From Microbacterium endophyticum (GTDB taxonomy: Bacteria; Actinomycetota; Actinomycetes; Actinomycetales; Microbacteriaceae), in the NCBI RefSeq assembly GCF_011047135.1, contig NZ_CP049255.1:806001-870000 (forward strand): 64,000 bases of DNA, in the 5' to 3' direction. The position numbers and the translations under genes are program-made. Positions 21,036 to 55,510 of the stretch are shown piece after piece. The notes below the pieces were generated by a model. The model did no database searches and was not told where the DNA came from. It worked only from the letters and a program-made list of their open reading frames with translations. Each line of letters begins with the position of its first letter. Position 1 is the first letter of the stretch.

Positions 21036-21143
21036 ATTTTTCCTTCTTCCTTTGTGAGGTACCAGGAACACAACGGCGTATCGCCGCGCGATATTCCACT
21101 TCGCATGTTCCTCCCCCACCCTGTGTGCCCGCTATGCCACACA

Positions 21144-21224
21144 CCACAAAAACGGAAAATCGCATTCAGTCGGATGCCTGGGCTCCAAACCCTCCGACGG
21201 AACGCGATTCTCCGACCGAACGAT
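21144..21224. repeat. Dispersed palindromic repeat, copy c (left bracket of protease gene)
   Basis: Arms at 21153-21174 and 21193-21214. About 80 bases, including the loop TGCCTGGGCTC-AAACCC, match copy d almost exactly in the same orientation. The copies lie on either side of the S53-like protease gene. Confidence 0.85.
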
Positions 21225-21231
21225 CGCCCGG

Positions 21232-23118: not shown

Positions 23119-23199
23119 ACCACAAAAACGGAGAATCGCGTTCCGTCGGATGCCTGGGCTCTAAACCCTCCGACGGAACGCGATTCTCCGACCGAACGA
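23119..23199. repeat. Dispersed palindromic repeat, copy d (right bracket of protease gene)
   Basis: Perfect 22-base inverted repeat: arms at 23129-23150 and 23169-23190, 18-base loop. The best-preserved copy of the family and nearly identical over about 80 bases with copy c. Confidence 0.9.
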
Positions 23200-23206
23200 C
23201 CGCTCG

Positions 23207-34000: not shown

Positions 34001-37000
34001 TTCGCTGAACGTCACGAAGTCACGAGTCGTGGCGTACATCATCCGGTTGTAGGTGCTTCCGGTGTGGTTCGTGTCGGCTGAGTCATACAGCTTCGATGCC
34101 CAGAACACGACGTACTCACCGATGGATTCATCGTAGTAGGCCTCCGGCGCCCACGTGTTTCCGGCCTCATCGGGCGAGACACGTACGTGACGCTGCTCAG
34201 ACCAGTTGATGAGGTCGGTGGATTCCCACACCTCGAGGTAGCGCGAGCCACTTCGCTGCGAGGCATCCCATGACGTTCCCCCACCGATCGAGAGGTCGGT
34301 GGCGATCAGGTAGAACTTGTCGCCCTCAGGAGAACGGATGACGAACGGGTCACGGAGGCCCTTGGTGCCGTATTCGGACTCGAGTACGGGCTGCCCGTCG
34401 TTGAGTTCGCTCCAAGAGAGAGCGTCGTTTCCGTCACTGGCAGCCATGTAGATCTTCTCACCCGCGAGGGTGTTGCCGGTGAAGTACGCGAAGGCGTAGC
34501 CCTCGTATTCCTGGTCGGCGAGCTTGGCCTTTACCGTGACGGGAATCTCGACCACCTCGGTGGCGCCGCCACGCGTGATGGTGGCGGTGAGAGTCACGTT
34601 CTTATCGGCCGAGGCCCGCGTGACGCGTCCCTTGGCGATCACATCGGGTTCGCCACCCGTCGACGTCCCCGAGGGCATGTCGGTTTCCGAGATGGCAGCT
34701 GTGTCAGATGACGACCATTCGATCTTCACGGTCTCGGCGCCGTCTTCGGCATCGAGACCCTGAATTTCGGCGAGCGTCTCGGGCAGCAGGATGTTGCCGG
34801 TGACGTCGCTGTTCTCACCTGCGAAGGGCAATCCCTTCACTGCCGCAGCAGTTCGGGTGACCCACTCGGTGTCGGCGTCGGCAGCTGTCGGGTCGAGTAC
34901 GCCCTCCATGACCGATGCGACCTGAGTTGCCGTCAGCGCTGAGCCGTAGACGCGCACATCGTCGACTGCACCGCCGTAGAACGGGTCGCCGTTGTAAGGT
35001 GAACGGCCGATTGCACCGCCGTTGGGCGAGGCGACTGCGGCGAGCGCCGAAGCCACGACAGCGGTGTTGGCCGAAGATACCGCGGTGCCGTTGACGTACG
35101 CGGTAATCTTCGATCCGCCGTCGAGCACGATGGCCAGGTGCGTCCAGTTACCCGTGGCCAGTTTCGCTGAGCGCGCGAGTGTCTCGGTCGCTCCGGCTTT
35201 CACGCCGGCTCGAGAGTCACCGCCGCAGAGTCCGCTGTCGAACAGGTAGGAGTTTCGCGAACGCGATTCGCCGAGTGAGATGTTCCACTCGCAGTTTCGT
35301 GCGTTGTCGGGCTTCAACCAGGCCGAGTACGTGATGTCTTCCTGATCGGCGTCGATGATACCGGTCGGCAGCCCCACCCATGCCGCACCTGACGTTGAGG
35401 TGCCACCGGGCAGGTCGAGTGCGCGTCCGTCACCGTTCGATCCGGTCACTGTCGCTGCTCCCGCACCGTTGATGGTGCCGTCGCGGCCGTTACCCGAAAG
35501 ATCGGCCACTGTTGCGCCGTTACCGGTTTCGGGCACGCTGTCGAAGTCGTACCAGAGCTGCAGGTCAGCGGGAGTCGCTGCGACGCGAAGCGTGGTGGTC
35601 TCGCGTGCGAGGCCTGCCGTGGCGGTGATCGTCACGTCGCCCTCGGCGACTGCCGTGACGAGCCCCGAGTTTGAGACTGTCGCGACGGTGTCGTCTGAGG
35701 TCGTCCATTCGACCGCCGGGATCGCACCGGAGCCGGCGACTGTGAACGCCACCTGCTCGGTCTCGCCCGGGCGAATGCCGGCGCGTGCGGTGTCGATGCT
35801 GAAGTCGGATGCCGCGGGGTCAGCCGCTGCAACGAAGGTCACCGTGGCGGGGGTAGCTGAGCCGTTGTCCATCCAGCCCTGCACCGTGACGATGTCGCCG
35901 ACAGCGCCAAGGGCCGAGAAGTCGGGGGTTTCCCATGAGACCTCGACCTCTTCGGTGCGGCCGCCGTCGTTTCCGAATGTTGCTGTCACGGTTTCGGGAA
36001 GCGATACGGCTGCGGGGCCACCGACGGGAACTTCGACCGTGCTGTTTTCAACAGCTGTGACGAGCAACTCGGGCTGGTAGGCGGTAGCGAGCCGGTCGTA
36101 TTCGGCACGCGTGATAGGCATCACTGTGCCGTGACGCGGCGAGTCGGGGAGCCCCGAGGAGTCCATTACAGTCCAGGTTTTCCCCTGGTCGGCGGAGGTC
36201 ATCGCTGCGTAACCCTGACCACCGTGGTAGCTCGGCTGGTCGATAAAGAGGTACCACTGGTCGGGGTTGTCGATCGAGGGGAAGACTGTGGGGCCTTCAC
36301 CGTTCGTGTAGGTCGAGATCGCACCGGTGGGGTTGGCGTACGACTGTCCGACACCAATATTCTCGGTAACGAGGCTCCACTGGTTCACATCATCGGTCGT
36401 GCTGAATGCCGTCCCGATGCCGTCGTGGATGATCGTGGCGCGCAGGTCGTTCGACTTCTGTAGCAGCACGTTCATCGGCCCTTCTTCCTTCGTGAAGCGG
36501 AAGTAGGTGTCGCCACTCTTGATGACCGACGAGTCGATCATGCCGTAGCCGCCTTCGCGACGCTCGGAGTCGATCCAAACCTGGGGCTCGCTGAACGAGA
36601 CGAAGTCACGCGTCGTTGCGTACATGATGCGGTTATACGAATCGGTGTTGTTGCGGCCGTCGACGCTGGCTGATTCGTACAGGTTAGAGGCCCAGTAAAC
36701 GAGGTATTCGCCGCGTGATTCGTCGTAGAACGCTTCAGGGGCCCAGGTGTTCCCGGCGAATTCGCTCGATACCTCGACGTGACGCTGATCAGACCAGTTC
36801 ACGAGGTCGGTGGATTCCCAGATTTCGAGGTAACGGCTGCCGTTCGTCTGCGCTTGCGCGAAGTTGACGCTCTCGGTGTTGAGGTCCGTGGCGAGCAGGT
36901 AGAAGCGGTCGCCCTCAGCCGAGCGGATGATGAACGGGTCGCGTACTCCTCCGGTGCCTTTATCAGACGACAGTACTGCGGCGCCGTCCTTGAGGTCATG

Positions 37001-38419
37001 CCAGTCGAGAGCGTCGGTTCCTTCGCTGACAGCGAGTCGTACTGATTCGCCGGCCGGCCCACCCTCACCGTTGAAGTAGGTGAAGAGGTACGCGGCGTTT
37101 TCGTCGGCACCCTGCGCTGCACGTACCGTCACGTCGAACGTGCGCGAGAGTGTGCCGCTGTGAGCGGTGAGCGCGACAGCCTGGTCGCTCCCGCCGCGCG
37201 TGACCACACCGGCGGCGATGTCGCCGTTGGCGCTGGTGGAGATGATGTTCTCGGGGTTTGCCGTCCACGTGATTTCCGTGCCATTGACAGCTCCGGTGTC
37301 AACGAGGGTGATGTTGCCACGGATATCGTCAGCGTTCGCAATCGCGAGCGCGTCGAGATCGGCTTGGCGCTCCCCTTCGGTGGCGTCCCGATTTTCAGGC
37401 ACCGTCACCTCGAATGTGCGGGTGTCGGTGACATCCCCCGATTTTGCGGTCGCCGTCAGCGTGACGGTGGCATCACCGTCACCGCGGCTCGGGCGTGCGA
37501 CGCGGCCGGTGTTACTCACGACGACGTCGTTGCTTGAGCTCCAGGTGACCGTGGAGCCGTAGCGGCTCGACGTCGGAAGCGTCAGGTTGCTCGTAACGTT
37601 CGACAGGTCGCCGAGGTCGATGAGGCTGAGATCACCGGCAACGCGTTCAGCAGGTGTCAGCGCGAGTGCCGAGACATCGGCGGCGGCGAGTGCCGAGTCG
37701 TAAATGCGGAAGTCGCGCACGTTGCCCTTGAGCAGTTTGTCGGCGGCGTAGTTCGACTTGCCGATGTTGTTCGAGGTCGTCACACCACCGCCGAGGCTTG
37801 CGGGTGTCGTCTCGATGCCTGTTGTCTGGCCAACCTGCACGCCGTCGAGGTACAGGGTGCCCGTCTGCGTTGCGCTGTCGAGCGTGTAGGCGATGCTCTT
37901 CCACACGCCGCGTGCGAGAGCTGTCGAATTGGTGGTGTTCTTTTCACCGCGCCAGTTATTGGGAGAAATCGTGGTGCGGTAGTTGTTTCCGGTGGCGAAC
38001 AGGTAGCCGTCGCCCGAGTCGCTCGTGGCCGGGGTACCGAGCCCATAAATGAAGTACGGGGTTGCCTGGTCGCTCGCGATCAGCACGTCCATGCTGATCG
38101 TGATCGAGTCGAGGCCTTCGAGCAGGTTGTTCGGCAGTTTCACGTAGTCATCGACGCCATCGAGGCGAATGCCTTCACCCGCGGCCAGCGCCGGGCTACC
38201 GACGATCGTGCCGTCTTTTCCGGCGCCCGAGCTGTCGTGCGCGACGGTGCCTTCGGTCTCATCGAGCGCGTAATGCGCGACGAGGCCATCGTCCGCTGCG
38301 ACTGCGGCGGCGGGCACGATGCCCGACAGGGCGAGGGTGGCGATTGCCGCCCCCGCGGTGAATCTCAGAGCCCTATTTCGGGAAAATGGGCGCGCTAAAG
38401 GCGTGCGAGAACGGTGCAT
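31028..38419 (-). CDS. Giant secreted, surface-anchored multi-GH43 arabinan/arabinogalactan-type glycosidase
   Basis: 2463 residues. Signal peptide (1-42), LamG (about 45-250), two atrophied bacterial Ig domains (255-435), GH43-like module 1 (about 438-783; GGVRDPFIIR), Big_4-type (785-855), Big_2-type (865-940), LamG 2 (950-1165), Ig-like (1185-1300), GH43-like module 2 (1305-1620; GLRDPFVIR), LamG 3 (1630-1845), Ig-like, GH43 module 3 (1933-2220; GYYADPNIAV), Ig-like modules, then LAVTG, a membrane helix and RRRR tail, the class E sortase signal. GH43 modules usually release arabinofuranose or xylose. Modules 1 and 2 are alike, module 3 differs, so they may cut different linkages. The LacI palindrome lies 81 bases upstream of the ATG at 38419. 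Confidence 0.85.
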   Translation of the reverse strand: MHRSRTPLARPFSRNRALRFTAGAAIATLALSGIVPAAAVAADDGLVAHYALDETEGTVAHDSSGAGKDGTIVGSPALAAGEGIRLDGVDDYVKLPNNLLEGLDSITISMDVLIASDQATPYFIYGLGTPATSDSGDGYLFATGNNYRTTISPNNWRGEKNTTNSTALARGVWKSIAYTLDSATQTGTLYLDGVQVGQTTGIETTPASLGGGVTTSNNIGKSNYAADKLLKGNVRDFRIYDSALAAADVSALALTPAERVAGDLSLIDLGDLSNVTSNLTLPTSSRYGSTVTWSSSNDVVVSNTGRVARPSRGDGDATVTLTATAKSGDVTDTRTFEVTVPENRDATEGERQADLDALAIANADDIRGNITLVDTGAVNGTEITWTANPENIISTSANGDIAAGVVTRGGSDQAVALTAHSGTLSRTFDVTVRAAQGADENAAYLFTYFNGEGGPAGESVRLAVSEGTDALDWHDLKDGAAVLSSDKGTGGVRDPFIIRSAEGDRFYLLATDLNTESVNFAQAQTNGSRYLEIWESTDLVNWSDQRHVEVSSEFAGNTWAPEAFYDESRGEYLVYWASNLYESASVDGRNNTDSYNRIMYATTRDFVSFSEPQVWIDSERREGGYGMIDSSVIKSGDTYFRFTKEEGPMNVLLQKSNDLRATIIHDGIGTAFSTTDDVNQWSLVTENIGVGQSYANPTGAISTYTNGEGPTVFPSIDNPDQWYLFIDQPSYHGGQGYAAMTSADQGKTWTVMDSSGLPDSPRHGTVMPITRAEYDRLATAYQPELLVTAVENSTVEVPVGGPAAVSLPETVTATFGNDGGRTEEVEVSWETPDFSALGAVGDIVTVQGWMDNGSATPATVTFVAAADPAASDFSIDTARAGIRPGETEQVAFTVAGSGAIPAVEWTTSDDTVATVSNSGLVTAVAEGDVTITATAGLARETTTLRVAATPADLQLWYDFDSVPETGNGATVADLSGNGRDGTINGAGAATVTGSNGDGRALDLPGGTSTSGAAWVGLPTGIIDADQEDITYSAWLKPDNARNCEWNISLGESRSRNSYLFDSGLCGGDSRAGVKAGATETLARSAKLATGNWTHLAIVLDGGSKITAYVNGTAVSSANTAVVASALAAVASPNGGAIGRSPYNGDPFYGGAVDDVRVYGSALTATQVASVMEGVLDPTAADADTEWVTRTAAAVKGLPFAGENSDVTGNILLPETLAEIQGLDAEDGAETVKIEWSSSDTAAISETDMPSGTSTGGEPDVIAKGRVTRASADKNVTLTATITRGGATEVVEIPVTVKAKLADQEYEGYAFAYFTGNTLAGEKIYMAASDGNDALSWSELNDGQPVLESEYGTKGLRDPFVIRSPEGDKFYLIATDLSIGGGTSWDASQRSGSRYLEVWESTDLINWSEQRHVRVSPDEAGNTWAPEAYYDESIGEYVVFWASKLYDSADTNHTGSTYNRMMYATTRDFVTFSEPQIWQDGTSRIDSTVLEVDDVYYRFTKDEGAGTTGCSDIIQESSESLRAPLNEWTMTDSCIGRDAGTQAVEGPSIFKANEGDVNGDGYYLFVDEYGGRGYIPLHSDDIANPDWKVPASFDLPASPRHGTVVPVTAAELEALSELKAQGPDPVESNEDGEILRYDFTDGEGTTLHDSSGNGYDATIAGGTWTADDSLSLNGTSGQYVDLPDNILSGVEDVTVETEVWIDPTQSGNYFIYNVGNTDSGGVGNGYFFATGDSTYRSSIASGNWSTEQTVNSGTKLERGRWAHLTYTLEGTTARLYLDGIQVAEKTGVTLDPGDIGGGATTANYLGRSAYNADNRLKGQLREFAIYDRALSAGEVLAQSGNASALVDITLEDADALKVAPIIDSTAHTVVFPVKPGTDVTALTPVFASGDGATVAPASGTTVDLSSPVTYTLTAEGGEVTEWTMSALVMASPVLPGYYADPNIAVFGGTYYIYATTDGYSGWGGKDFYVWSSTDLVEWTRSAAPILTLDSEDGNVPWASGNAWAPTITEKDGKYYFYFSGHNDDYGRKTIGVAIADSPDGPFTAQPEAMVLNNETVTSGQAIDPAAFLDPVSGDYYLFWGNGSPVYAKLSDDMTSLEPGTISRINGLTDFREGAFVNYRDGLYHLTYSIDDTGSENYRVGYATATSIDGPWTYRGVILQKDLSLGIKGTGHSSIINVPGTDDWYIAYHRFGMPGGDGTHRETTIDKLTIGEDGLFQTVTPTLTSVAAQTVEDTNPLTVAITGDTKVGETLSIDINEEWTAAGIQWTRNGSAVAGATAATYELTDADVDATIGVQVTGAKALWPGMTVEAEVGPIVGSGTVTPEPTTEPTDPTDAGADWADVSLSGGGSVEQGGTLRVSVTGLAPGQQIGATLRSEPIVVTGIPAADASGSVYFEVPIPSDFALGAHRLIITSPGYDDLVIGVSVVAPGVLAVTGAQVPLGILLAAIMLLVIGGMIAVTRRRRMV

Positions 38420-38499
38420 CTTTGCTGTCCTTCGGGGATCTCTCGGGCTGCATTGCTCGGGCGTGCGACAGGGGTGTCACGATCGTCGCCGGCCGGTTC

Positions 38500-38513
38500 T
38501 GTTACCGGTAACA
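38500..38513. promoter_or_regulatory. LacI-type operator before GH43 gene
   Basis: TGTTACCGGTAACA, identical to the site before the ytfQ-like gene, so the same LacI regulator probably controls enzyme and importer. Confidence 0.8.
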
Positions 38514-38613
38514 ATCTGTTGCCGAGCATAGAGGCCACGAAACCGCGGTGTCAACGTCGCGTGCGAAAGTCGCTCGAAAATTTTCGGGCACGCACCCGAC
38601 GCGCGCCTCGTAA

Positions 38614-38745
38614 CGTCGGAGAATCGCACCACGTCGGATGCTGCCCCCAGCATCCGTCCGACTGAACGCGATTCTCCGACCGAAGGCCGCCGCGAAAGGC
38701 TACGAGTCGTGCGGAAACAACGGTATGCGCCCGAGGGCATACAAC
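38614..38745. repeat. Direct repeat, left end of 10-kb cassette (includes palindromic repeat copy e)
   Basis: Bases 38632-38745 are identical to 48632-48745 (114 of 114), and the match extends left to 38614 with four mismatches. The block contains palindromic repeat copy e (arms 38614-38638 and 38657-38680) plus 46 bases identical to the phosphoribosyltransferase 3' end, including its stop codon. Confidence 0.92.
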
Positions 38746-38754
38746 ACCTCGAAG

Positions 38755-39798
38755 CTACGCGCCGCCTCGGGTGCGGCTGGGCGCGGCGGCACTCTGGCGC
38801 ACCACAACGGGCGGTCGCTCCGACGAATATTTACGTGTCGCTTCACCCGCAATCTCGGCGAGCATCAGACTGAAGCCGCGGCGGCCGAGTCGAGCGAAAT
38901 CTTGATCGACGGTGGTGAGCGGAGGTGACCAAAGCGCTGCTAACGGATGGTCGTCGAATCCGACAACCGAGATGTCTTCGGGAACGCTAAGTCCCGCGTC
39001 GGTGATACCACGGATGACGCCCATCGCAATTTCGTCGTTACCGCAGAACACCGCGGTGACATCGCGGGATGCCGCAATGCCCGCACCGACAGCCACGCCG
39101 CTGTGCGGGTCCCACGTCGCGTCGAGGATCACCGGCACATCACGCCCCGCTGTGCGCAGAGCACGCCGCCACCCGGTCGTTCGCCCGTCTTCTCGACGTG
39201 AAGCCGGCACCCGAACATGGTGCACCGTCGCGTGCCCGAGATCGAGCAGGTAGTTGGTGAGTTCTTCTGCCGCGCGAGTTTCATCGATAACGGCCTGTGG
39301 CACCGAGGTGTCCCGCACCCCCGACAGTGCGACGATCGGTACCTCGTGCGGCATTTGTGCCAGGGCAGCAACTCCGGGCGGGTCGAACTTCAGCACGATG
39401 ATCCCTGCAAGCGACTGAGAGAGGGTTGCAGCAATCGCTTTTTCAACGACTGCATCATCATTGCTCTCGACCACCGTGATCATGACGGTGTAGCCGCTTG
39501 CCCGGGCAGATTCTTCAACTCCGCGAATCGCCTCAGCGTACCCATATTGTGAGGTGTCCCCCGCGATAATCGCAATGACCTGCGGCCGCCGCGACGCGAG
39601 AGCGCGAGCTGCGGCCGATGGGCGAAAGCTCAGTTCTGCGATGGCCCGCTCGACGCGCTCCCGGCGCACGCGGCTCACTTTGGCGGCGCCCGTCAGCACC
39701 CGAGAAACCGTGGGCACCGATACATCGGCCAGGGCCGCGACGTCCGCAATGGTGACACGATTCGCCGCGGCATCATTGCGAACTTCGATGTGCGTCAT
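38755..39798 (-). CDS. LacI-family transcriptional regulator 2
   Basis: 347 residues. HTH and hinge VTIADVAALADVSVPTVSRVL, then FRPSAAARALASRRP; sugar-binding domain with VFCGNDEIAMGVIRGI and ISVVGFDDHPLAALWSPPLTTV. The ATG overlaps the permease stop (TAATG), so it is the last gene of the galactosidase-importer operon. The TGAAAGCGYTATCA triple site at 45224-45281 is the likely target. Its stop lies ten bases from the direct repeat at the cassette edge. Confidence 0.9.
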   Translation of the reverse strand: MTHIEVRNDAAANRVTIADVAALADVSVPTVSRVLTGAAKVSRVRRERVERAIAELSFRPSAAARALASRRPQVIAIIAGDTSQYGYAEAIRGVEESARASGYTVMITVVESNDDAVVEKAIAATLSQSLAGIIVLKFDPPGVAALAQMPHEVPIVALSGVRDTSVPQAVIDETRAAEELTNYLLDLGHATVHHVRVPASRREDGRTTGWRRALRTAGRDVPVILDATWDPHSGVAVGAGIAASRDVTAVFCGNDEIAMGVIRGITDAGLSVPEDISVVGFDDHPLAALWSPPLTTVDQDFARLGRRGFSLMLAEIAGEATRKYSSERPPVVVRQSAAAPSRTRGGA

Positions 39799-40673
39799 TA
39801 CTTCACGGCTCCACTGGTGATTCCCGAGATGATCTTTCGCTGCGCGATCATGAAGATGATCAGTAGCGGCAGGCTCATCAAAATGATGTACGAGAAGATC
39901 AAGTGCCAGTTTTGCAGGTACAGTCCTGAACTTGCGACCTGGTACAGGTTCAAGGGAAGTGTATCTAAGCGGCCTCCGACGACGAACAGTGCGTAAAAAA
40001 CATCGTTCCAGATATAGAGACAGATCAATATCGTCGCGGTGGCAAGAACCGGCATGAGCAGCGGCAGGATGATGCGGGTGAACACGCGAATCGGCGATGC
40101 CCCATCCATACGGGCAGCTTCTTCGAGTTCTACCGGAATTGTTCGAACAAACCCAGTGACAAAGAAAATAACGGTCGACAGATACATGCCCATGTACACG
40201 CAGATCATTCCGATTGCGGTTCCGGCAAGCCCGAGTTGGCGCAAGAGGAGCACTACGGTAACAACCGCTGGTGGCAACACGATCCCGCTGATTGCAAACG
40301 CGTAGACGATGGCGAGGGGTCGAGATGATCTGCGGCCGAGCACCCAGGCTGCCATCGACCCGAGGATGAGCACTCCGAGGACCGCGGGAACCATCACCAG
40401 CACGCTGCCGCCGAACGCTGCCGCCATCTTGCCGTCGCTGATGACCGTGGCGAAATTGTCGAAAAGCTGAAAGTTCGAAGGCAGCGCGAGGTTGGGATTG
40501 AGTGCTTCAGCCTGGTCTTTTGCGGCAGTCACAATCACCAGATAAAAGGGAACACCCAACAGCAGAACGGCCGAGAGAATCGCCGCGACTGGCTGAACCC
40601 AGTGCGCTCGGTGTCGGTGTTGCTGCGGTGACGTCGACTTCTTGCCGGTCACGAGGGTCATGGTGGCGCTCAC
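39798..40673 (-). CDS. Sugar ABC transporter permease (MalG type)
   Basis: 291 residues, six membrane helices, with the EAA loop VELEEAARMDGASPIRVFTRIILP that contacts the ATPase. CUT1 family. The GTG at 40673 overlaps the upstream permease stop by four bases (GTGA); ATG at 40661 is an alternative. No ATPase gene is in this operon, so a shared MsiK-like ATPase elsewhere is expected, as is common in Actinobacteria. Confidence 0.88.
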   Translation of the reverse strand: MSATMTLVTGKKSTSPQQHRHRAHWVQPVAAILSAVLLLGVPFYLVIVTAAKDQAEALNPNLALPSNFQLFDNFATVISDGKMAAAFGGSVLVMVPAVLGVLILGSMAAWVLGRRSSRPLAIVYAFAISGIVLPPAVVTVVLLLRQLGLAGTAIGMICVYMGMYLSTVIFFVTGFVRTIPVELEEAARMDGASPIRVFTRIILPLLMPVLATATILICLYIWNDVFYALFVVGGRLDTLPLNLYQVASSGLYLQNWHLIFSYIILMSLPLLIIFMIAQRKIISGITSGAVK

Positions 40674-41608
40674 AGTACGTCCTCTCGCTTGCGCAGCGTG
40701 CGAATAACGGGGAAAGCGAGCAGTCCAACGACGAGGAAGAGAATGAGGCTCATCGTCGTGGCCTGGGCAAAGAGTCCCTGTCCGAAGGTCCGGAAAATGA
40801 AGATGTTGAGCAGTTCTGTCGTGCCGCCCGGTCCACCGGCAGTGGTGGCCTGCACGATGTCGAAGCCGTTCATCGAGCCGAGGAGCGCAGTAGCGACGTT
40901 GAAGGTGACAGCCGGCGCGAGCAAAGGGAAGCGGATCTTTCGCAGCGTCATCCACCACCCGGCACCGTCAATGCGAGCTGCTTCGAGCACATCGCCGCTG
41001 ATCGTTTTGAGCCCGGCGAGATAAATCAGCATCGAAAGCCCCATCCACTTCCACGAGTGGATCAGAGCGACAACAACGATTGTCCAGGTTGTGCTGCCGA
41101 GCCATGCGATTTCGATGGGCTGGCCGGTGAAGAAGCCGAGGATTGCGTTGAGCGCACCGTCGGGCTTCAGCATCGCTTGGAAGATGTAGCCGACCGCGAG
41201 CGCCGACATGATCACCGGCACGAAGAATGCGACCCGCACGGCACGGTTGACTCGCGTATCCCGCTCGAGGAGAAGAGCGAGAGTGAACCCGAACACATTT
41301 TGGAAAATGGCGACAAGCACGGCATAGATGAGCGTGACGACGAGAGCGTTGACGAGAGTGCCGTCGGAGAACAGCGCCTCGAAGTTCGCGAAACCGACGA
41401 AGCCGATCGAAGACTTGAAGCTCGACCAGTTCGTGAATGCGTACACGAAGTTGAAGAGCGTAGGTATCACGAAGAAGACAATGAGTACCGCCATAGCTGG
41501 CAGCAGAAACCAGAGGGGGTGATTCTGATTCGCGCGGCGCGTGGGAGAGAACTCTTTGATTCCTTGAGCGCGCGCCGCACCTTTGGATAGTCCGAGTGTG
41601 GAAGTCAT
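40670..41608 (-). CDS. Sugar ABC transporter permease (MalF type)
   Basis: 312 residues, six membrane helices after a basic N-terminus, with EAA loop DVLEAARIDGAGWWMTLRKI. CUT1 family partner of the MalG-type permease. ATG at 41608 is chosen over an upstream ATG that lacks family residues. It lies 60 bases after the binding-protein gene. Confidence 0.88.
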   Translation of the reverse strand: MTSTLGLSKGAARAQGIKEFSPTRRANQNHPLWFLLPAMAVLIVFFVIPTLFNFVYAFTNWSSFKSSIGFVGFANFEALFSDGTLVNALVVTLIYAVLVAIFQNVFGFTLALLLERDTRVNRAVRVAFFVPVIMSALAVGYIFQAMLKPDGALNAILGFFTGQPIEIAWLGSTTWTIVVVALIHSWKWMGLSMLIYLAGLKTISGDVLEAARIDGAGWWMTLRKIRFPLLAPAVTFNVATALLGSMNGFDIVQATTAGGPGGTTELLNIFIFRTFGQGLFAQATTMSLILFLVVGLLAFPVIRTLRKREDVL

Positions 41609-41668
41609 GATTCCTCGCGGTCGTGGGTGCGGGATGCCGAAGCCACGCTCCGGCATCCCGCGGGGGCC

Positions 41669-42985
41669 TTAGAAGCCGGGGGCTCCGATAGCCTTCGCAA
41701 GCTCATCGAACTGCGACTGTGTTGTCTCCGCTACCTGAACCGGGGTTTGGGTGCCCTGGATCATGTCGCCGAGGTTGAGGTACAGGTCGGGGTTCGCGAT
41801 CGCGAGCGCCTGCATGGATCCGACCGAGTCGGTGAGAGAGTCGCTGACGGCGAGCAGTGCCGCAGGCACGTCGGATGGTGTCTTGACACCGTCTTGCAGC
41901 GACACAGTGGACTGCGCGGCAACGAAGTCTGCGTAGCCGTCACCCATCCAGTACGAAAGCAACTGGCGTGCGGCCGCCTCGCGCTTGTCATCTCCCGTGT
42001 TGAAAGCCACAAGCGCGTTCGACTGGTCGGGAATGAACGTACCGACGTTACCCGTGGGCGAGATCGGGAAGAATCCAATCTTCTGGTCAAGCTCGGCAGT
42101 GTCAGCAAGGGACTGCAGCTGGCCGAAGAATGAGTTGACTTGTACCGCCATAGCGGCATCTCCCGACAACAGCGCGGGACCCTGATCTTCGAACGTTGCC
42201 GTCTTGAGGTTGCTGTTGAAGAGTCCCTCGTCGATCAAATCCTGGTAGGTGTCGATGGCACCTTGGATCGTCGGATCGGTGAACTTCTCTTTGCCCGTGT
42301 TGACGCGCTCCCACAGACCGTCGGCTGCGGCGTCAGCAAGCTGCACCTGCACCCACCACTGCGTCGCCCAGGGTGTTCCGCCACCGAAGTCGAAGAACGG
42401 TGTCACTCCGCTGCTCTTCAGGCTGCGAGCATCCTTGAGGAAATCGTCCCAGTCCGTGGGAGTCTCAGTGATACCCGCCTTCGCGAAGACCTCTTTGTTG
42501 TAATAGACGCCTTCGACAGCAGGCGTGGTGATGAGCGCCGCGTAGCGGGTGTCGTCAAGAATTCCGGTGATGTCACGAATTCCGGGCTTGTATGAGTCAA
42601 GCCAGGGAGCATCATCGAGCGGTAACAGGTTCTTCGACGCGTTGAGCGCCGTGAGCTGCGACGCCGTGGGCTGCCAAAACGCGAGGTCAGGCATATCGCC
42701 GGTCGCGACTTTGGTCTGCACGCTCTGCTCGTACGGGTCGGGAATAGTGACGACATCCACCTTTGCTCCGGTGAGCTTCTCAAACCCCGCCACGACGCTG
42801 TCGGGCACCGTGTTGGAGTTCTGCGCGGCCCAAATAGTGAGAGTCGTGTCGGTCAGGTCGCTATCTTGGGCTGGCCAGTCGGCAGGCGAAGAGGATCCTT
42901 CACCATTGCCGGGGTCTGAGCAGCCAGCGAGGGCAAGTGCAGCTGTTGCGGTGAGTGCCACAGCTGCGGCGAAACGCTTCTTCAT
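41669..42985 (-). CDS. Sugar ABC transporter solute-binding lipoprotein
   Basis: 438 residues. Signal peptide with lipobox LALAGC, then the family 1 binding-protein fold (LTIWAAQNSNTVPDSVVAGFEK, LAFWQPTASQLTALN, YYNKEVFAKAGITETPTDWDDFLK). Binds an oligosaccharide outside the membrane for the MalFG-type permeases. Lies 47 bases after the alpha-galactosidase gene, in the same direction; an alpha-galactosyl disaccharide is the likely ligand (inferred). Confidence 0.88.
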   Translation of the reverse strand: MKKRFAAAVALTATAALALAGCSDPGNGEGSSSPADWPAQDSDLTDTTLTIWAAQNSNTVPDSVVAGFEKLTGAKVDVVTIPDPYEQSVQTKVATGDMPDLAFWQPTASQLTALNASKNLLPLDDAPWLDSYKPGIRDITGILDDTRYAALITTPAVEGVYYNKEVFAKAGITETPTDWDDFLKDARSLKSSGVTPFFDFGGGTPWATQWWVQVQLADAAADGLWERVNTGKEKFTDPTIQGAIDTYQDLIDEGLFNSNLKTATFEDQGPALLSGDAAMAVQVNSFFGQLQSLADTAELDQKIGFFPISPTGNVGTFIPDQSNALVAFNTGDDKREAAARQLLSYWMGDGYADFVAAQSTVSLQDGVKTPSDVPAALLAVSDSLTDSVGSMQALAIANPDLYLNLGDMIQGTQTPVQVAETTQSQFDELAKAIGAPGF

Positions 42986-43032
42986 CGAATTGCTCCTTAA
43001 TGTGTTTACAGTTTGACGTGATACGTGGGTGC

Positions 43033-45177
43033 TCATTGCCCGAGCGGGCTGACAATGAGGCGAAAGGTGCGCGCGGCAATCGTGGTATCGCTCGCGTGCA
43101 CGGTTAAGGTTCCGGTTGTGGCGTCCCACACGGTGGGCCACGCCGGAAGGTGTGAGGGGAAGATCGTCTCGACGCTCACGGTGCGACCCGCGAGATGGGG
43201 AAGCGATAGTTCTGTTGAGGTGGAGGATCCTCCGCGGTGCCACACCGATACGAGATCGTGCCCATCGGCGGCGAGACCGAGCGAGATCCATTCGTCTGTC
43301 CAGCCCGGAAGGCCAAGCGGCCAATACGGCGTGCTCACAATGATGTGCTGGCGCAATTGCTTCGCCATCCCAATCGCTTCGCTCACGAGCGCACGCTGTG
43401 GCCCACTCATGCGATTGAGGTAACCAGAGACGTAGTAGCGGCCGAGGAGACCGGTCACGAGACAGAATGCGATCTCTTCATCATTCATATCCGGTTGCGG
43501 GTAGGCCCAGCTCGCGGCCTGCTCGGGAACCATCGACAGCGGTGCCGCAGCAGCAATCGGCGGATAGCTCACGAAATCCTGCTGATCTGACGTCGACTGC
43601 ATCGCCATGCGCGAAAGCATCGCGTAGTCCATGCGCATCGCACCCGAACTACAGTTTTCGATGATGAGATCCGGATGCCGGTCAAGTAGCCTATCGAGCC
43701 ACGCAAGATGAGCACGGTTGTGCTGGAGCAGTCCGTCACCCGGGCTGTCTGCACCGAGATCGGTTCCCACACCCGGGTTGATGTTGTAGTCGAATTTGAA
43801 GAACTCGACGCTGAAATCAGCGATCAATCGATCCACGACAGCGTCGAGGTGGGCTACAGCCGCGGGATGCCGAAAGTCGAGGTGGAATCGGTCGTGCTCT
43901 ACAACGCGTACCCCGCGTCGCTGCAAGAAGGCTTCGGTCGGGAGTGTGTCCGCGAGAGGGCTTCGTATGCCTACGACCTCTGGTTCGAGCCAGAGTCCGG
44001 GTGCCATTCCGGCAGCCAGGATCGCATCAATCACTTCACGGAGACCACCCGGAAATCGACTTTCGGATGGCTTCCATTCACCGACAGAGTCCCACCAGTC
44101 GCCAGATTCGTCGTACCAGCCAGCATCGATGCAAAACACCTCGCATCCTGATTCAGCTGCGGCAGCAATGAGCGGAAGCAGCTTCTCCGTCGTCGGGTCT
44201 CCGTCGAGAGTGTTCATGTAGTCGTTGAAAACGACCGGCATCCGCTTATTGTCGACGTGGATTCGACGCAACTCGCGCCGGTATCCCGTGAGCTGGGCCA
44301 ACAGCGCGTCGCCGTCAACGCCAACGGTGATGGCAACCGGCACCGAGACAAACTCCTGGTCGGGTCCCAGAACGTGTAGCCAAGAAGAATCAGCATCTGT
44401 TGGGCCCGAGAGCGCAAGATACCCACCAGAGGTGTCTTCACCAACTTCCCAGCGCCAGGCACCGTTGTGCTCAATCTGCCACGCGAACCCGAGTTGAGCT
44501 TCGGCCGAAACAATGGCCGCAGTGGGCAGGTGATGCCCCGTCGACCAGGTACCTTGCGACGTTGCGGTGAGGCTTCCGCGCGGATTGTGACCGGTGAGGT
44601 GTTCAGACAGCCTCGGAAAATCAATACCTCGCAGCGCATTCCGCGCCCAGCGGCCTTCGCCGAGCCAGTCGCTTTTTCCTCGTAGAAGCTGCCACCCGTC
44701 GAGCGGATCGGCTCCATCTGCCATACGAGTGAAACCAGCATTCCATGATGCAACAGACATCAGCGCGAGCGGGCGTTCACTGTCGTTCTGCACAGCGACG
44801 CAGGAACGCACAGTGCGCGTGACCGCGTAGCTCTCCAGCCGAAGTTCCGAACGGATCTGCCCGGCACGCTGACAAATCCGAAGCTCCGGGCGTCCACTTT
44901 TTGAGATGCCTTCAGAGTGAGAGACATATCGAAACTGAGTGCCGAGAGTTGTGTGCGCGATGCGGGATGAGGCTGGCTGATGGCCTCCTGTCACCGAGTT
45001 CACCTCGATTACAGGCACACGGTGCACGGCGATCTCTCGGGAATCGAGGACATATCCAGCCACGTGCACAGGGGTTTCGGCATCCCATTCCAAGATGACT
45101 GCGAAGCCGCTGTCACCCCAGACAAGACGGTCCGCAGTCTCGGCGGCCGTTGTCTTCGTTGTCATCAGTGCACTCAT
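43033..45177 (-). CDS. GH36 alpha-galactosidase
   Basis: 714 residues, no signal peptide, so it acts in the cytoplasm on imported sugars. N-terminal beta-supersandwich, then a TIM barrel with VFCIDAGWYDESGDWWDSVG, nucleophile KFDYN (near residue 462) and the SSGAMRMDYAML plus TSDQQD block with the acid/base Asp near 530. ATG at 45177 with GGAGA ribosome site. First gene of the operon alpha-galactosidase, binding protein, two permeases, LacI. Hydrolyses terminal alpha-galactose. Confidence 0.92.
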   Translation of the reverse strand: MSALMTTKTTAAETADRLVWGDSGFAVILEWDAETPVHVAGYVLDSREIAVHRVPVIEVNSVTGGHQPASSRIAHTTLGTQFRYVSHSEGISKSGRPELRICQRAGQIRSELRLESYAVTRTVRSCVAVQNDSERPLALMSVASWNAGFTRMADGADPLDGWQLLRGKSDWLGEGRWARNALRGIDFPRLSEHLTGHNPRGSLTATSQGTWSTGHHLPTAAIVSAEAQLGFAWQIEHNGAWRWEVGEDTSGGYLALSGPTDADSSWLHVLGPDQEFVSVPVAITVGVDGDALLAQLTGYRRELRRIHVDNKRMPVVFNDYMNTLDGDPTTEKLLPLIAAAAESGCEVFCIDAGWYDESGDWWDSVGEWKPSESRFPGGLREVIDAILAAGMAPGLWLEPEVVGIRSPLADTLPTEAFLQRRGVRVVEHDRFHLDFRHPAAVAHLDAVVDRLIADFSVEFFKFDYNINPGVGTDLGADSPGDGLLQHNRAHLAWLDRLLDRHPDLIIENCSSGAMRMDYAMLSRMAMQSTSDQQDFVSYPPIAAAAPLSMVPEQAASWAYPQPDMNDEEIAFCLVTGLLGRYYVSGYLNRMSGPQRALVSEAIGMAKQLRQHIIVSTPYWPLGLPGWTDEWISLGLAADGHDLVSVWHRGGSSTSTELSLPHLAGRTVSVETIFPSHLPAWPTVWDATTGTLTVHASDTTIAARTFRLIVSPLGQ

Positions 45178-45223
45178 CGCTTCTCCATCGAATTACGGGA
45201 TCACCGAGGACTGTATGCGAATT

Positions 45224-45281
45224 TGAAAGCGCTATCAAGTTTGTGATGAAAGCGTTATCATTCAATCTGAAAGCGTTATCA
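45224..45281. promoter_or_regulatory. Three LacI-type operators in divergent promoter
   Basis: TGAAAGCGCTATCA at 45224-45237, then TGAAAGCGTTATCA at 45247-45260 and 45268-45281, spaced 23 and 21 bases (about two helix turns). They lie between the alpha-galactosidase operon and the surface glycosidase gene and so can control both. Confidence 0.82.
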
Positions 45282-45363
45282 CTATTTGCTTGTCATGAGC
45301 CCATCGCTGTTGCTAACGTGCCCAACGGCGCACACGCGCCGCCTCAACGAAGAGAACAGGTCA

Positions 45364-48300
45364 ATGGTGAAATCTCAGCCGATAACAGCGTGCGGCGTCG
45401 TAGCGGCGCTCGTCCTCACCCCCCTCGCGGCGCTTCCAGCATCCGCGGCAGACACGCAGACGCTTTCCGTCGACTTTTCGCACACGACGGGAGACTTCCG
45501 GGGAGGCGCAAGCGGCGCTCTCTACGGTCTCGGCGACGAAGGTGCACCAACCGAGGCGCTCTTGAACGGTGCCGCGATCACTAATGTGTCGCAGAAAGCA
45601 CCGTACGGCACTCAGCACCCGTCAGGTGACGCGCTGAAGGTCGAAGATGGTTTCTTCCAGAAGCACGGCGAAGACATGTACATCTACGTGCAGGATTACT
45701 ACCCCGATTGGCCCTATAACGGCGGCGCGCGGCCCGGTGATGACCGCACATACAACCTCAGCGACGGCAGTTACACCAATGGCGGCAACGGCATCTGGGA
45801 CTTCCTCGAGGTTACGGAGTTCGTCGCCGACGCTGTCGCATCCGATTCGTCATATCCCGAGAGCTACGTGTTCATCCCGTTCAATGAGCCCGACGGTGGC
45901 AATTGGTACCCCAACTGGGGAGCGCAGCAAGATCAGTTCCTTGCAGATTGGCAATCGATCTACGACACGATCCAGCGCGTGTGGAGCGACGCAGGCCTCG
46001 GGCACGCTCGCATAGGTGGTGGGGGCGATACTCGCTGGCAGCCCGAGCGAAGTGCCGACATTCTCTCGTTCGCCAAGGCAAACGACTCGTTGCCCGACGT
46101 ATTCATCTGGCACGAACTAGGCATCGATAATCTCGCAACATATCGTCAGCACTTCGCCGATTATCGGGCACTCGAAGTCTCTCTCGGGATCGACCCCATT
46201 CCGATCAACATCACTGAGTACGGGATGCTGCGCGATATGGGCGTACCCGGGCAGCTGGTGCAGTGGTTCGCGATGTTCGAAGACACCAAGGTCGACGCAC
46301 AGGTGGCGTACTGGAACTACGCAGGCAATCTATCCGACAACAGTGCACGCCCCAACGGAGCGAACGCCGGGTGGTGGATGTTCAATTGGTACGGCAATCT
46401 TGCCGGCAGCCAGACAGTTGCTGTCACTCCGCCACAGCTCAATGCAGCCGACACCCTTCAGGGCATTGGTGCTATCGACGCCGACAATAGGAAGGCAACT
46501 GTCTTGTGGGGCGGAACAGGCGACGACGTCACGCTCGAGCTTTCGGGGCTCGACCCCGAGGTCTTCGGTTCACGTGTTGATGTCGAGGTGCGCGAAACCA
46601 CACTGGCAGGTGCAGAAGGTCTCGCAAACACTCCCCGCGTTGTCGAGGCCTTCGATGGGGTATCAATCACCGATGGCGCAACATCGCTCACGGTGCCCAC
46701 ATACGACCGCTACGCCGGCTATCAGCTCGTCATCACTCCCGCACAAACGCGCGATGTGCAGGCGGAGGCTGCAAGCCAAGCGTGGAACGCGTCGAGCGAG
46801 GCCGAGGCGCTGCAGCTCACGTCAGCGCAGGCGTACACGCAAAATCCCACGGCCTCTGGTGGGTGGAAATTTCTCGCCTCGGGAGGTCGCGATGTTGGCT
46901 CATTCAACAGGGCATCGTCGAAAGCTGACTGGAGTGTCGACGTGCCCGCTGATGGCACATATCGATTGCAAGTGATCGGTTCAACCCCTGGAAAGCCTGG
47001 CCAGCATGCGATATTCGTCGACGGCGAGAGCGCAGGAATCATTCAGTACACGGCAGATCTCGCGCTCAACGACACGAGCCGTTGGCAGTACCGTGGCAGC
47101 GCCGAAAAGTTGGTCGAGCTCACGGCGGGCAGTCACGCATTGTCGTTTCGTGCGAGCGAAAACGGCTCGAGCGTGTTGCCAAATGCCGATATTTCACTCG
47201 ATAAGGTTTCGTTGACGCGCGTTGACGAGGGCGAAAAGATCACATATCCCGCGTCGACGTTCCGCCTGGTTGACGGCGCTGCGCTCGATTGGGACACGTC
47301 ACTGCAGCGCGGCTGGGCGAGCATTTCTGCCGATCAGCATGCCGATGTTTACCTGACCGCGATGGACACGGGCTACTACGACCTTGGCATCGACTGGGCG
47401 AGCAGCGATGCTGGCAACGTCACGGTCTCGGTCAATGGCCAAGTGTCGACGTTGGTGACGTCAACCGAGGCTGGGCGCTGGGCGTCAACGGCCCGCGTGC
47501 ACCTTGTCGAAGGCATCAACGAAGTCGAGTTGCATTCAGACGCGGCATCCATCGGAAAAGTTTCGACGCAGCGTGCGCGCGAAGCCGACGATGCACAGGT
47601 GTCGGTTGAGGCCGAAGCCGCCACTCTTGGAGGTACGGCATCTGTGTCGTCTGCCGCAGCCGGCAGCAATGCGTCTGGCGGCAAGTACGTCGGGTACGTC
47701 GGCAACGGCGCGGCCAACACGATCGCGATCAACCGCACGACAGGCATTGACCAGCCGGGCGACTACGACGTGACGGTGCACTACTCAAATGCCGAGGTTT
47801 CGGGCAGACATGATTACAACCCACAGGTTGTCGATCGACGCATCGATCTGGCAGAGGCCGGCAGTCCTGTGGGACAGGGCTACTTCCGCTACACCTACGC
47901 GTGGGAGAGTTTCTGGCAGCGAAGCGTTGCAGTTACGTTGCAGACTGGCGATCAACCGCTCGTGTTGGGAAACGCGTCTGCATACGCTCCCAACATTGAC
48001 CGTATTGTTGTGTCGCCGCGCGTGCTCGGCGCCCCGACGACGGACGCCCTGGCTACACCGTCGGGTGTGCTGACGCTCTCGAAAAACCAGACGACAGCGG
48101 GCGAAGAGGTATCGGTGTCGGGCAGCGAATTCTCCGCGGGCGATGTGGTCACCCTGACGCTCTACAGCGATCCGATCGAGCTCGGCTCGGTAACAGCTGG
48201 TGCCGACGGCACATTCGCCCTCGATGCGATGCTTCCGGTCGACGTCCCCGCCGGCAACCACACGCTTCGCGCCGTTGCTGACCCCTCGGGGACGCAAGCC

Positions 48301-48555
48301 GAAGCGTCGCTTTCGGTAGCTGCCGCTGCGGGAGGCGGCGGCAGCGGTAGCGGCGGCGGCGGCAGCGGCGGCAGCAGCGCAGGCGGTAGTACCGACGCCG
48401 GAGCCGCAGCCGTTGCTGGCCCGAACAGGGCGAGCTCGCAGAGCCCGCTCGCAGTCACAGGCGCAGCGATCGGCCCTTGGGCGTTCCTGATAGGCGTCGG
48501 CGCCATCGCCATAGGCGGACTGATCGTTTCAGCCCGGCGAGCGCGCCGCTCCTGA
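45364..48555 (+). CDS. Surface-anchored clan-A glycoside hydrolase with CBM modules (GH39-like)
   Basis: 1063 residues. Signal peptide (1-28), a TIM-barrel domain (about 30-360) with YVFIPFNEPDGGNWY (acid/base Glu) and PINITEYGML (nucleophile Glu), the spacing seen in clan A families such as GH39; a small beta domain; two carbohydrate-binding regions of CBM35/CBM6 type (about 450-620 and 740-880); a beta-sandwich; a Gly/Ser linker; LAVTG, membrane helix and RRARRS. ATG at 45364 is preceded by GAGAACAGG. It is divergent from the alpha-galactosidase operon and shares its triple operator. A galactosyl-arabinose-releasing role is my hypothesis; the exact family is not certain. Confidence 0.75.
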   Translation: MVKSQPITACGVVAALVLTPLAALPASAADTQTLSVDFSHTTGDFRGGASGALYGLGDEGAPTEALLNGAAITNVSQKAPYGTQHPSGDALKVEDGFFQKHGEDMYIYVQDYYPDWPYNGGARPGDDRTYNLSDGSYTNGGNGIWDFLEVTEFVADAVASDSSYPESYVFIPFNEPDGGNWYPNWGAQQDQFLADWQSIYDTIQRVWSDAGLGHARIGGGGDTRWQPERSADILSFAKANDSLPDVFIWHELGIDNLATYRQHFADYRALEVSLGIDPIPINITEYGMLRDMGVPGQLVQWFAMFEDTKVDAQVAYWNYAGNLSDNSARPNGANAGWWMFNWYGNLAGSQTVAVTPPQLNAADTLQGIGAIDADNRKATVLWGGTGDDVTLELSGLDPEVFGSRVDVEVRETTLAGAEGLANTPRVVEAFDGVSITDGATSLTVPTYDRYAGYQLVITPAQTRDVQAEAASQAWNASSEAEALQLTSAQAYTQNPTASGGWKFLASGGRDVGSFNRASSKADWSVDVPADGTYRLQVIGSTPGKPGQHAIFVDGESAGIIQYTADLALNDTSRWQYRGSAEKLVELTAGSHALSFRASENGSSVLPNADISLDKVSLTRVDEGEKITYPASTFRLVDGAALDWDTSLQRGWASISADQHADVYLTAMDTGYYDLGIDWASSDAGNVTVSVNGQVSTLVTSTEAGRWASTARVHLVEGINEVELHSDAASIGKVSTQRAREADDAQVSVEAEAATLGGTASVSSAAAGSNASGGKYVGYVGNGAANTIAINRTTGIDQPGDYDVTVHYSNAEVSGRHDYNPQVVDRRIDLAEAGSPVGQGYFRYTYAWESFWQRSVAVTLQTGDQPLVLGNASAYAPNIDRIVVSPRVLGAPTTDALATPSGVLTLSKNQTTAGEEVSVSGSEFSAGDVVTLTLYSDPIELGSVTAGADGTFALDAMLPVDVPAGNHTLRAVADPSGTQAEASLSVAAAAGGGGSGSGGGGSGGSSAGGSTDAGAAAVAGPNRASSQSPLAVTGAAIGPWAFLIGVGAIAIGGLIVSARRARRS

Positions 48556-48561
48556 ATCATG

Positions 48562-48595
48562 CTGAGGACCGGGTCGTTTGCGGCCCGGTCCTCAG
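48562..48595 (+). terminator. Terminator-like hairpin after surface glycosidase gene
   Basis: Perfect stem CTGAGGACCGGG / CCCGGTCCTCAG with a 10-base loop, six bases after the stop codon. Only a weak T-rich tail (TGATTTC). Confidence 0.75.
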
Positions 48596-48613
48596 TGATT
48601 TCGCACTCCGAAG

Positions 48614-48745
48614 CGTCGGAAAATCGCCCTCCGTCGGATGCTGCCCCCAGCATCCGTCCGACTGAACGCGATTCTCCGACCGAAGGCCGCCGCGAAAGGC
48701 TACGAGTCGTGCGGAAACAACGGTATGCGCCCGAGGGCATACAAC
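48614..48745. repeat. Direct repeat, right end of 10-kb cassette (includes palindromic repeat copy f)
   Basis: Same block as 38614-38745, exactly 10,000 bases further on. Here its right 46 bases are the genuine 3' end of the phosphoribosyltransferase gene. The left part is palindromic repeat copy f. Confidence 0.92.
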
Positions 48746-49278
48746 CTGTCGCTGTAGTCGTCGAGCACGTCGGGCCACCCGTCACCCTCGACGAGCAGCG
48801 AACCCACCCCCACGATGTCGGCGCCGGCGCGTTGCAGCAGCGTGAGCGCTGCCTTGACCGAAGACCCCGACGAAATCACGTCGTCGACGAACAGCACGCG
48901 GCGCGCGGCGACCGACGCGAGGCGTGCCCGGTCGAGCAAAAGCGACTGTGAATTCGTCGATGTAATCGCATGCACGGGCTCTTCGAGCGCATCACCGAGG
49001 TGCACTTTGCGGGTCTTCTGCAAGATGAGGTAGTCGTCGAGGCCGAGGGCACGCGTGACAGCGATGGCGATCGGGATGCCGAGGGTCGCTGGCGCCACCA
49101 CGATCTCTGGTCGCATCTCGTCGAAGTGTTGGGCAAGCTCCCGGCCTGCGGTGTCAACGAACGAGACGCCGTGGTCGATCACCATCATGAGCGCGATCGA
49201 GAGGTCTGATCCCACAGGGATGACCGGGAGTGTGATGCGTTGGCTACCGACCTGCGCATCGAACGTTTCTGGAACCAT
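48700..49278 (-). CDS. Phosphoribosyltransferase (purine type)
   Basis: 192 residues with the PRPP-binding signature VLFVDDVISSGSSVKAAL near residue 130 and PEIVVAPATLGIPIAIAVTRALG near 60, plus DYLILQKTRKVHLGD. Similar in length and order to xanthine/adenine phosphoribosyltransferases; the exact base is not predictable. ATG at 49278. Its last 15 codons (with stop) lie inside the 114-base direct repeat; the gene here is intact and a fragment of it lies at 38700-38745. Confidence 0.82.
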   Translation of the reverse strand: MVPETFDAQVGSQRITLPVIPVGSDLSIALMMVIDHGVSFVDTAGRELAQHFDEMRPEIVVAPATLGIPIAIAVTRALGLDDYLILQKTRKVHLGDALEEPVHAITSTNSQSLLLDRARLASVAARRVLFVDDVISSGSSVKAALTLLQRAGADIVGVGSLLVEGDGWPDVLDDYSDRLYALGRIPLFPHDS

Positions 49279-53923: not shown

Positions 53924-53966
53924 GTCGCGTCTCCTCTCACTCGGTGGTCGTCTGGTGTGGTGTGGC

Positions 53967-55493: not shown

Positions 55494-55510
55494 GATGAGC
55501 CAATCGGGTC

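What the first reader, a model, noticed from the sequence alone, without database searches (positions are those of the whole stretch)
38614..48745. 10-kb glycan-utilisation block bracketed by identical 114-bp direct repeats with a gene 3' end inside
Seen: 38632-38745 and 48632-48745 are identical, exactly 10,000 bp apart. Between them lies a complete unit: LacI, two permeases, binding protein, alpha-galactosidase and the surface glycosidase. The repeat contains the last 46 bases of the phosphoribosyltransferase gene, which is intact on the right and only a fragment on the left. Duplicating a gene's 3' end is typical of site-specific integration. Inference: the block was acquired or moved as a cassette, at the expense of a former junction between the GH43 gene and the phosphoribosyltransferase.
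Basis: partly seen in the sequence, partly recalled or inferred. Interest (0 to 1): 0.75.

Follow-up and report, generated by a model that had tools for sequence, protein, structure and literature searches.

The report
Swappable sugar-use block between repeats
A 10-kb set of genes for using a plant sugar sits between two copies of a DNA hairpin joined to the tail of a neighbouring gene, and a sister species has a different sugar-gene set between the same two copies, so this looks like a docking site where gene sets are swapped without an obvious recombinase.

Summary
The repeat is real. 38632-38745 and 48632-48745 are identical, and an imperfect stretch extends both copies to 132 bp (from 38614 and 48614). 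It has two parts: a ~70-bp hairpin from a family dispersed in this genome (12 places), and the last 46 bp of the phosphoribosyltransferase (PRT) gene, intact only on the right. The decisive comparison is Microbacterium halimionae (G114): same left flank (giant GH43 gene), same right flank (PRT), both repeat copies (its left copy keeps 129 bp of PRT 3' end), but a different 10-kb cassette between them. Neither genome shows a match to the other's cassette. A second cassette in the window (one gene, 21232-23079) is bracketed by a duplicated hairpin; G114 has one hairpin and no gene there. Repeat tails agree within a species rather than by side, so they were exchanged or converted after the split. 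No tyrosine or serine recombinase lies near the block. Best reading: an integrase-less cassette-exchange site, most like a minimal mobile element, with recombination at the hairpin-PRT repeats. The cargo has the gene set of bifidobacterial arabinogalactan side-chain clusters, so the 'alpha-galactosidase' may be a beta-L-arabinopyranosidase.

The parts
38614..38745 (+). Left copy of the repeat: hairpin (38614-38683), spacer, and a 46-bp orphan fragment of the PRT gene 3' end (38700-38745)
48614..48745 (+). Right copy of the repeat: hairpin (48614-48683), spacer, and the true last 46 bp of the PRT gene (48700-48745)
48700..49278 (-). Phosphoribosyltransferase gene (192 aa), intact; its 3' end is duplicated at the left repeat
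   Evidence: PF00156; 15 of 366 genus genomes at E <= 1e-12, own included
38755..39798 (-). LacI-family regulator of the cassette
39798..40958 (-). ABC sugar permease (mechanical ORF overlapping the next; the true start is probably further in)
40670..41656 (-). ABC sugar permease
41669..43324 (-). Extracellular solute-binding protein (mechanical ORF overlapping the next gene; true start probably further in)
43033..45177 (-). GH36-type enzyme; closest NCBIfam model beta-L-arabinopyranosidase BAD1528 (below its cut-off)
45286..48555 (+). Surface glycosidase: GH39-like region (by matches to 5u22 and 8uwt), CBM35, LAVTG-like sorting tail (below model cut-off)
31028..38419 (-). Left flank: 2463-aa GH43 surface protein (BAD1527-like region below cut-off, GH43, LAVTG tail above cut-off), conserved in G114
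21143..21230 (+). Second cassette, left hairpin repeat (82 of 88 identical to the right copy)
21232..23079 (-). Second cassette: single gene with a Peptidase_S8 match, not in G114 at this site or by genome search
23119..23206 (+). Second cassette, right hairpin repeat; G114 has one hairpin and no gene here

Best explanation
The GH43-PRT interval is a cassette-exchange site without its own recombinase. Shown: two sister Microbacterium species carry unrelated ~10-kb sugar-utilisation cassettes between the same two flanking genes, each bracketed by a direct repeat made of a dispersed hairpin plus the 3' end of the PRT gene; and repeat tails agree within a species, not by side. Inferred: incoming DNA that carries a cassette with a hairpin-PRT tail recombines, by the cell's general (RecA-type) recombination, with the resident hairpin-PRT copy, and resident cassettes are lost by recombination between the two direct copies. 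Crossovers or conversion inside the repeat keep each side's own left arm but mix the tails. The cargo in the window probably releases, imports and splits an arabinose- or galactose-capped disaccharide from plant arabinogalactan (inferred from gene content).
For: Synteny: window 25391-38745 aligns to G114 at 88% up to the end of the left repeat and 48602-50422 at 89%, while the block between aligns to nothing in the 40 kb compared; the two cassettes share no blastn match at E 0.01 and have different genes. The window block has no match in G114 at E <= 1e-20 (81 of 366 genomes matched, all 81 listed, G114 not among them), and 6,550 bp of the G114 cassette have none in G000. Site patterns over 132 bp: 7 sites shared by both copies within a species, 1 shared by side, 0 crossed. 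In G000 the bracketing pair 844613/854613 are each other's best match among 23 hairpins, while hairpins at other places pair with their orthologue. A second hairpin-bracketed cassette has a one-hairpin site without the gene in G114. 3 of 9 large indels in 121 kb compared lie at hairpins. No tyrosine or serine recombinase near by. Precedent for integrase-less hotspots: PMC5635113 (passages); definition of minimal mobile elements in PMC3082526 (passages).
Against: Only two genomes hold the locus, so there are no population data and no one-copy empty site at the main locus. In G114 the two bracketing hairpins are not each other's best match (87% to each other, 89% to G000_844613). Flank identity shows no step or dip at the repeat, so there is no footprint of imported flanks. 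Relatives of the operon in 14 other genomes, taken with at least 3.9 kb of flank on each side, have no hairpin (one match, E 0.88) and no bracketing repeat beyond one chance-sized 26-bp match, so the repeat does not travel with this operon in general. The third hairpin-side indel (G114, ~600 bp) duplicates nothing. The hairpin enrichment is weak if indels fall only in intergenic DNA (p 0.026 against 3.6e-5); the 10% intergenic share is assumed, the indel list was made by hand, and the regions were chosen for their hairpins. Gene conversion alone would also give the site pattern. How the first left PRT fragment arose is not explained.
Confidence: 0.58

Rival explanations
1. Site-specific integration of a genomic island at the 3' end of the PRT gene by a recombinase that is now lost or acts in trans; the 132-bp repeat is attL/attR.
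For: Duplicated gene 3' end, with the intact gene on one side and a fragment on the other; different cargo at the same site in G114.
Against: No integrase or other mobility domain in the ORFs scanned of either cassette. G000 has four PF00589 and three PF00239 matches, none within about 0.49 Mb of the block. The duplicated PRT length differs, 46 versus 129 bp. No match of the repeat in 72,556 plasmid or 50,697 phage records (records near the window's genome may be left out).
Confidence: 0.15
2. Tandem-array loss: the ancestor carried several cassettes in series, each ending in a hairpin-PRT tail, and each species lost different ones by recombination between direct repeats.
For: Both species have the same repeats around different cargo, and the repeat lengths differ. 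The second locus fits simple loss in G114 as well as gain in G000.
Against: No array of two cassettes was seen. The 114-bp identity in G000 is too young for an unaltered ancestral pair (0 of 114 differences; chance 4.7e-7 at an assumed 12% divergence), so conversion must be added.
Confidence: 0.15
3. Unrelated insertions in a generally plastic region; the repeats are an old local duplication kept alike by gene conversion and play no part in cassette movement.
For: Other large indels near by show no repeats at their edges (50422/56947, 2144/2194). All 7 species-type sites could be conversion.
Against: Both boundaries of both different cassettes coincide with the repeats, and the second cassette shows the same architecture.
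Confidence: 0.12

Closest known systems
Minimal mobile elements (Neisseria; definition seen in passages of PMC3082526)
   Same: Different whole-gene cassettes between the same two conserved genes in related bacteria; incorporation by homologous recombination is the proposed route.
   Different: Here the cassettes are bracketed by a direct repeat (dispersed hairpin plus a duplicated gene 3' end), which the definition seen does not include; found between two species, not among strains of one.
Integrase-less HGT hotspots (PMC5635113, passages)
   Same: Variable cargo at a fixed chromosomal spot without recognised mobility genes.
   Different: Those are explained by double recombination in flanking core genes; here the boundaries fall in a short repeat and flank identity shows no footprint.
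Genomic islands integrated in gene 3' ends (general knowledge, recalled)
   Same: Direct repeats, one intact gene and one 3' fragment.
   Different: No integrase found, and the repeat contains a dispersed palindrome.
Bifidobacterial GAfase/AAfase clusters (PMC10688797, passages)
   Same: Same gene set: GH39, GH36, solute-binding protein, two permeases, LacI.
   Different: Different genus; here it sits in an exchange site. Substrate not tested.

Membership tests
Minimal mobile element | Different gene cassettes between the same two conserved genes in related genomes | tested here: met
   G000 and G114 only; between species, n = 2
Minimal mobile element | Incorporation by homologous recombination | tested here: inconclusive
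   Within-species agreement of repeat tails, but no footprint in the flanks; no experiment
Site-specifically integrated genomic island | Direct repeats with a duplicated gene 3' end | tested here: met
Site-specifically integrated genomic island | Integrase gene in the element | tested here: not met
   ORFs scanned; whole genomes, PF00589 and PF00239
Integron gene cassette | Nearby integrase of the tyrosine-recombinase kind | tested here: not met
   No PF00589 match within about 0.49 Mb of the block in G000; attC consensus was not searched
Composite transposon / insertion sequence | Transposase genes in or at the ends of the block | tested here: not met
   No transposase domain in the main ORFs scanned
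GAfase/AAfase arabinogalactan side-chain cluster | Gene set GH39 + GH36 + SBP + two permeases + LacI | tested here: met
   against the set described in PMC10688797; the GH39 assignment rests on sequence matches to 5u22 and 8uwt
GAfase/AAfase arabinogalactan side-chain cluster | Asn- or Tyr-type specificity residue of the GH39 enzyme, and enzyme activity | not tested

The most novel reading that the evidence does not exclude
The dispersed hairpin is the functional docking site of an unrecognised cassette system in Microbacterium: gene cassettes enter and leave next to hairpins, duplicating hairpin and adjoining sequence, with a host factor (structure-specific nuclease, Xer-type recombinase or RecA) acting in trans. 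The near-equal cassette units of 10,000 and 10,002 bp in two species would point to delivery of DNA of fixed size.
Probability: 0.12. Interest if true: 0.75.

Novelty: new variant of a known kind. Interest (0 to 1): 0.5.

Why it matters
Many bacterial hotspots of gene turnover lack integrases and their mechanism is inferred mainly from statistics over many genomes (PMC5635113, passages). This site gives a small, testable case: two species, same flanks, two cargoes, and a marked repeat whose left arm and tail record where exchange happened. It also links niche adaptation (probable use of plant arabinogalactan side chains) to a defined swap site.

Tried and rejected
tRNA target: none in the window. 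Known RNA family for the hairpin: no Rfam match at gathering score. Covariation in the hairpin: 0 of 17 pairs with changes on both sides; 95.7% of cells pair, but the arms are conserved as sequence. Repeat carried on plasmids or phages: no match; the GH36 protein has relatives on 9 plasmid records, all under 60% identity. The operon bringing its own repeat: a first test on 15 loci had flanks too short to pass the surface gene, so I repeated it on 14 of the 15 with longer flanks (G303, on a short contig, not refetched): no hairpin better than E 0.88, no bracketing repeat except one 26-bp match in G344. Donor footprint in flanks: none seen. Terminator role of the hairpin: no scan hit in it; the two minus-strand hits at the repeats lie in the PRT-derived tail, and the region had fewer hits (5) than shuffles (mean 8.2). 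The 13 other PRT-bearing genomes: no second PRT copy, GH43 or neighbour match better than E 0.017 in stretches of 7-20 kb, and one weak hairpin match (G301, E 0.027) that is not at the PRT end. Literature on such palindromes in Microbacterium or Actinobacteria: three narrow all-terms searches gave 0 papers, so absence is claimed for those term sets only; a search for M. halimionae gave 12 papers, of which 10 were seen as listing only.
Full report
1. The observation. The two 114-bp copies are identical and exactly 10,000 bp apart. Chance is not a serious option for a 114-bp exact match. With mismatches the homology reaches further left; I use the gap-free 132-bp pair 38614-38745 and 48614-48745, which differ at 4 sites, all in the first 18 bp. 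The last 46 bp of each copy are the 3' end of the PRT gene (48700-49278, minus strand), which is whole only on the right.

2. A hidden component. A search of the window's own genome (G000, one contig of 2,916,114 bp) with the right copy returned 17 matches; 15 of them lie within the first 91 bases of the query and only the two repeat copies run to its end. The short ones are members of a palindromic family. A covariance model built from 11 copies finds 12 places in G000, 6 of them in this window, and 11 places in G114 (each place is matched on both strands). In a wider set 20 of 118 genomes, G000 included, have it at E <= 1e-4, all in one genus of the 31 genera searched (strict filters). The arm 11-mer CGGAGAATCGC occurs 19 times in G000 and 18 in G114, against 0 for the reversed control. 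Arms are conserved as sequence; pair counts give no covariation support. No Rfam family matches at gathering score.

3. The decisive relative. Of 366 genus genomes, 15 (own included) encode a PRT relative at E <= 1e-12; G114 is by far the closest (97% protein identity; the next 74-77%). Its region aligns with window 25391-38745 (88%) and with 48602-50422 (89%), but not with the block between. Instead it has a different block: IclR regulator, two permeases, an FAD-dependent oxidoreductase, a 1021-aa protein with a GH31 C-terminal domain, and a probable binding protein (only 125 residues of it were scanned, SBP_bac_8 at E 7e-4, under the cut-off). The two blocks share no blastn match at E 0.01; tblastx gives scattered protein-level matches, best E 1e-26, the longest between permease genes. 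The left copy in G114 is also hairpin plus PRT 3' end, but it holds 129 bp of PRT (the equivalent of window 48700-48828) where G000 holds 46. The window block has no match in G114 and the tested 6,550 bp of the G114 cassette have none in G000. In the other 13 PRT-bearing genomes the fetched stretches show neither these neighbours nor a second PRT copy.

4. History of the repeat. Over 132 bp, 7 sites separate the species with both copies alike, 1 separates left from right, 0 are crossed; single-copy changes are 7 (G114 left), 6 (G114 right), 0 (G000 left), 1 (G000 right), and 2 sites are complex. In the further 83 bp of PRT present in G114's left copy, 3 sites group the two G114 copies, 1 groups G114 left with G000, 2 are private to G114 left. 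So the tails were duplicated or converted within each lineage, while the first ~18 bp keep some left/right identity (few sites). That is what crossing-over or conversion inside the repeat would leave. In G000 the event is recent: 0 of 114 differences, where an assumed 12% divergence would give 13.7 (probability 4.7e-7); in G114 the copies differ at 16 of 132. Most hairpins at other positions are the best match of their counterpart in the other species, so they are old residents. In G000 844613/854613 are each other's best match (93%, against 85-89% to G114); 827149/829125 are 94% alike, with 829125 slightly closer to G114 (96%). In G114 the bracketing pair is 87% alike and both copies are marginally closer to G000_844613 (89%) over the 71-bp hairpin, which does not single out that pair.

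5. A second case. At 21143-21230 and 23119-23206 a hairpin with its 5' neighbour is duplicated (82 of 88 identical) around a single gene (21232-23079, Peptidase_S8 match). G114 has one hairpin there and no gene. The gene has relatives in 13 other genus genomes of 366 at E <= 1e-30, none above 54% identity. Gain in G000 and loss in G114 both fit. A third difference, about 600 bp with an acetyltransferase gene in G114, lies directly beside a hairpin but duplicates nothing. Counting large indels by hand in 121 kb of compared DNA, 3 of 9 lie at hairpins (p 3.6e-5 over all DNA, 0.026 if indels fall only in an assumed 10% intergenic share). The compared regions were chosen because they hold hairpins or the window, so this is suggestive only.

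6. Mechanism. No recombinase domain was found in the ORFs scanned of either cassette. G000 has four PF00589 matches: two with counterparts in G114 at nearly the same scores (XerC/XerD-like by recall), one with a possible counterpart at lower score, and one partial; the nearest is about 0.49 Mb from the block. It has three PF00239 (resolvase) matches, the nearest about 0.79 Mb away. Flank identity varies from 82 to 97.5% per kb with no dip at the junctions. I therefore favour general recombination acting on the hairpin-PRT repeat as a homology anchor, as proposed for minimal mobile elements (PMC3082526, passages) and, at core-gene flanks, for integrase-less hotspots (PMC5635113, passages). The step from anatomy to this mechanism is inference. 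Where the first left PRT fragment came from is not explained by it.

7. Cargo. The 714-aa enzyme matches the NCBIfam model of beta-L-arabinopyranosidase BAD1528 at 607 bits (cut-off 1100, so not a member by that rule), and PDB alpha-galactosidases at up to 93 bits. The surface protein matches 5u22 and 8uwt, named in the table N2152 and 'Possible beta-xylosidase diverged, family 5/39', and has CBM35 and a LAVTG-like tail under its cut-off; a protein search gave 417 relatives at E <= 1e-20, 120 of them listed, the named ones from actinobacteria such as Agromyces, Glycomyces and Microbacterium. LacI, two permeases, binding protein, GH36 and GH39 together are the gene set that PMC10688797 describes for beta-L-Arap-(1->3)-L-Ara and alpha-D-Gal-(1->3)-L-Ara use in bifidobacteria (passages). 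The part from LacI into the GH36 gene exists at 72-74% nucleotide identity in 13 other genus genomes as one match of at least 5.7 kb, and in two more in pieces. In 14 of these 15 I read 20 kb: 12 also hold a relative of the surface enzyme beside it (37-70% identity), and none has a convincing hairpin or bracketing repeat. So the operon itself is ordinary; its placement is the point. The GH43 neighbour on the left carries a BAD1527-like region under that model's cut-off, and BAD_1527 itself is an arabinofuranosidase that did not act on larch arabinogalactan (PMC11264647, passages), so I do not claim that the neighbour acts on the same substrate.

8. Verdict. It is most like known integrase-less exchange sites, with an unusual repeat. 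Limits: two genomes, no reads, no experiment.

Noticed in passing
window 38745/48745; G114:C1 1151631-1161633: The repeat unit is 10,000 bp in G000 and 10,002 bp in G114 although the cassettes are unrelated. The second cassette unit is 1,976 bp, so there is no general size rule.
   Followed up: partly
window 50423-56946: A block with a dipeptide-type ABC transporter is present here and missing from G114 at this place, with no repeat seen at its edges.
   Followed up: partly
window 31028-38419: A 2463-aa surface protein with three Laminin_G_3 stretches, GH43, a BAD1527-like region, Ig-like domains and a LAVTG sorting tail.
   Followed up: no
G114:C2 801487-802091: An acetyltransferase gene inserted directly beside a hairpin that stands without it in G000.
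   Followed up: partly
G000:C1 2886291-2899573: A phage-type integrase, a resolvase (2892274) and a partial integrase match within about 13 kb, 2.03 Mb from the block along the contig: possible remnant of an integrated element.
   Followed up: no
window 2144-2194: G114 has about 5.8 kb extra here; not examined further.
   Followed up: no
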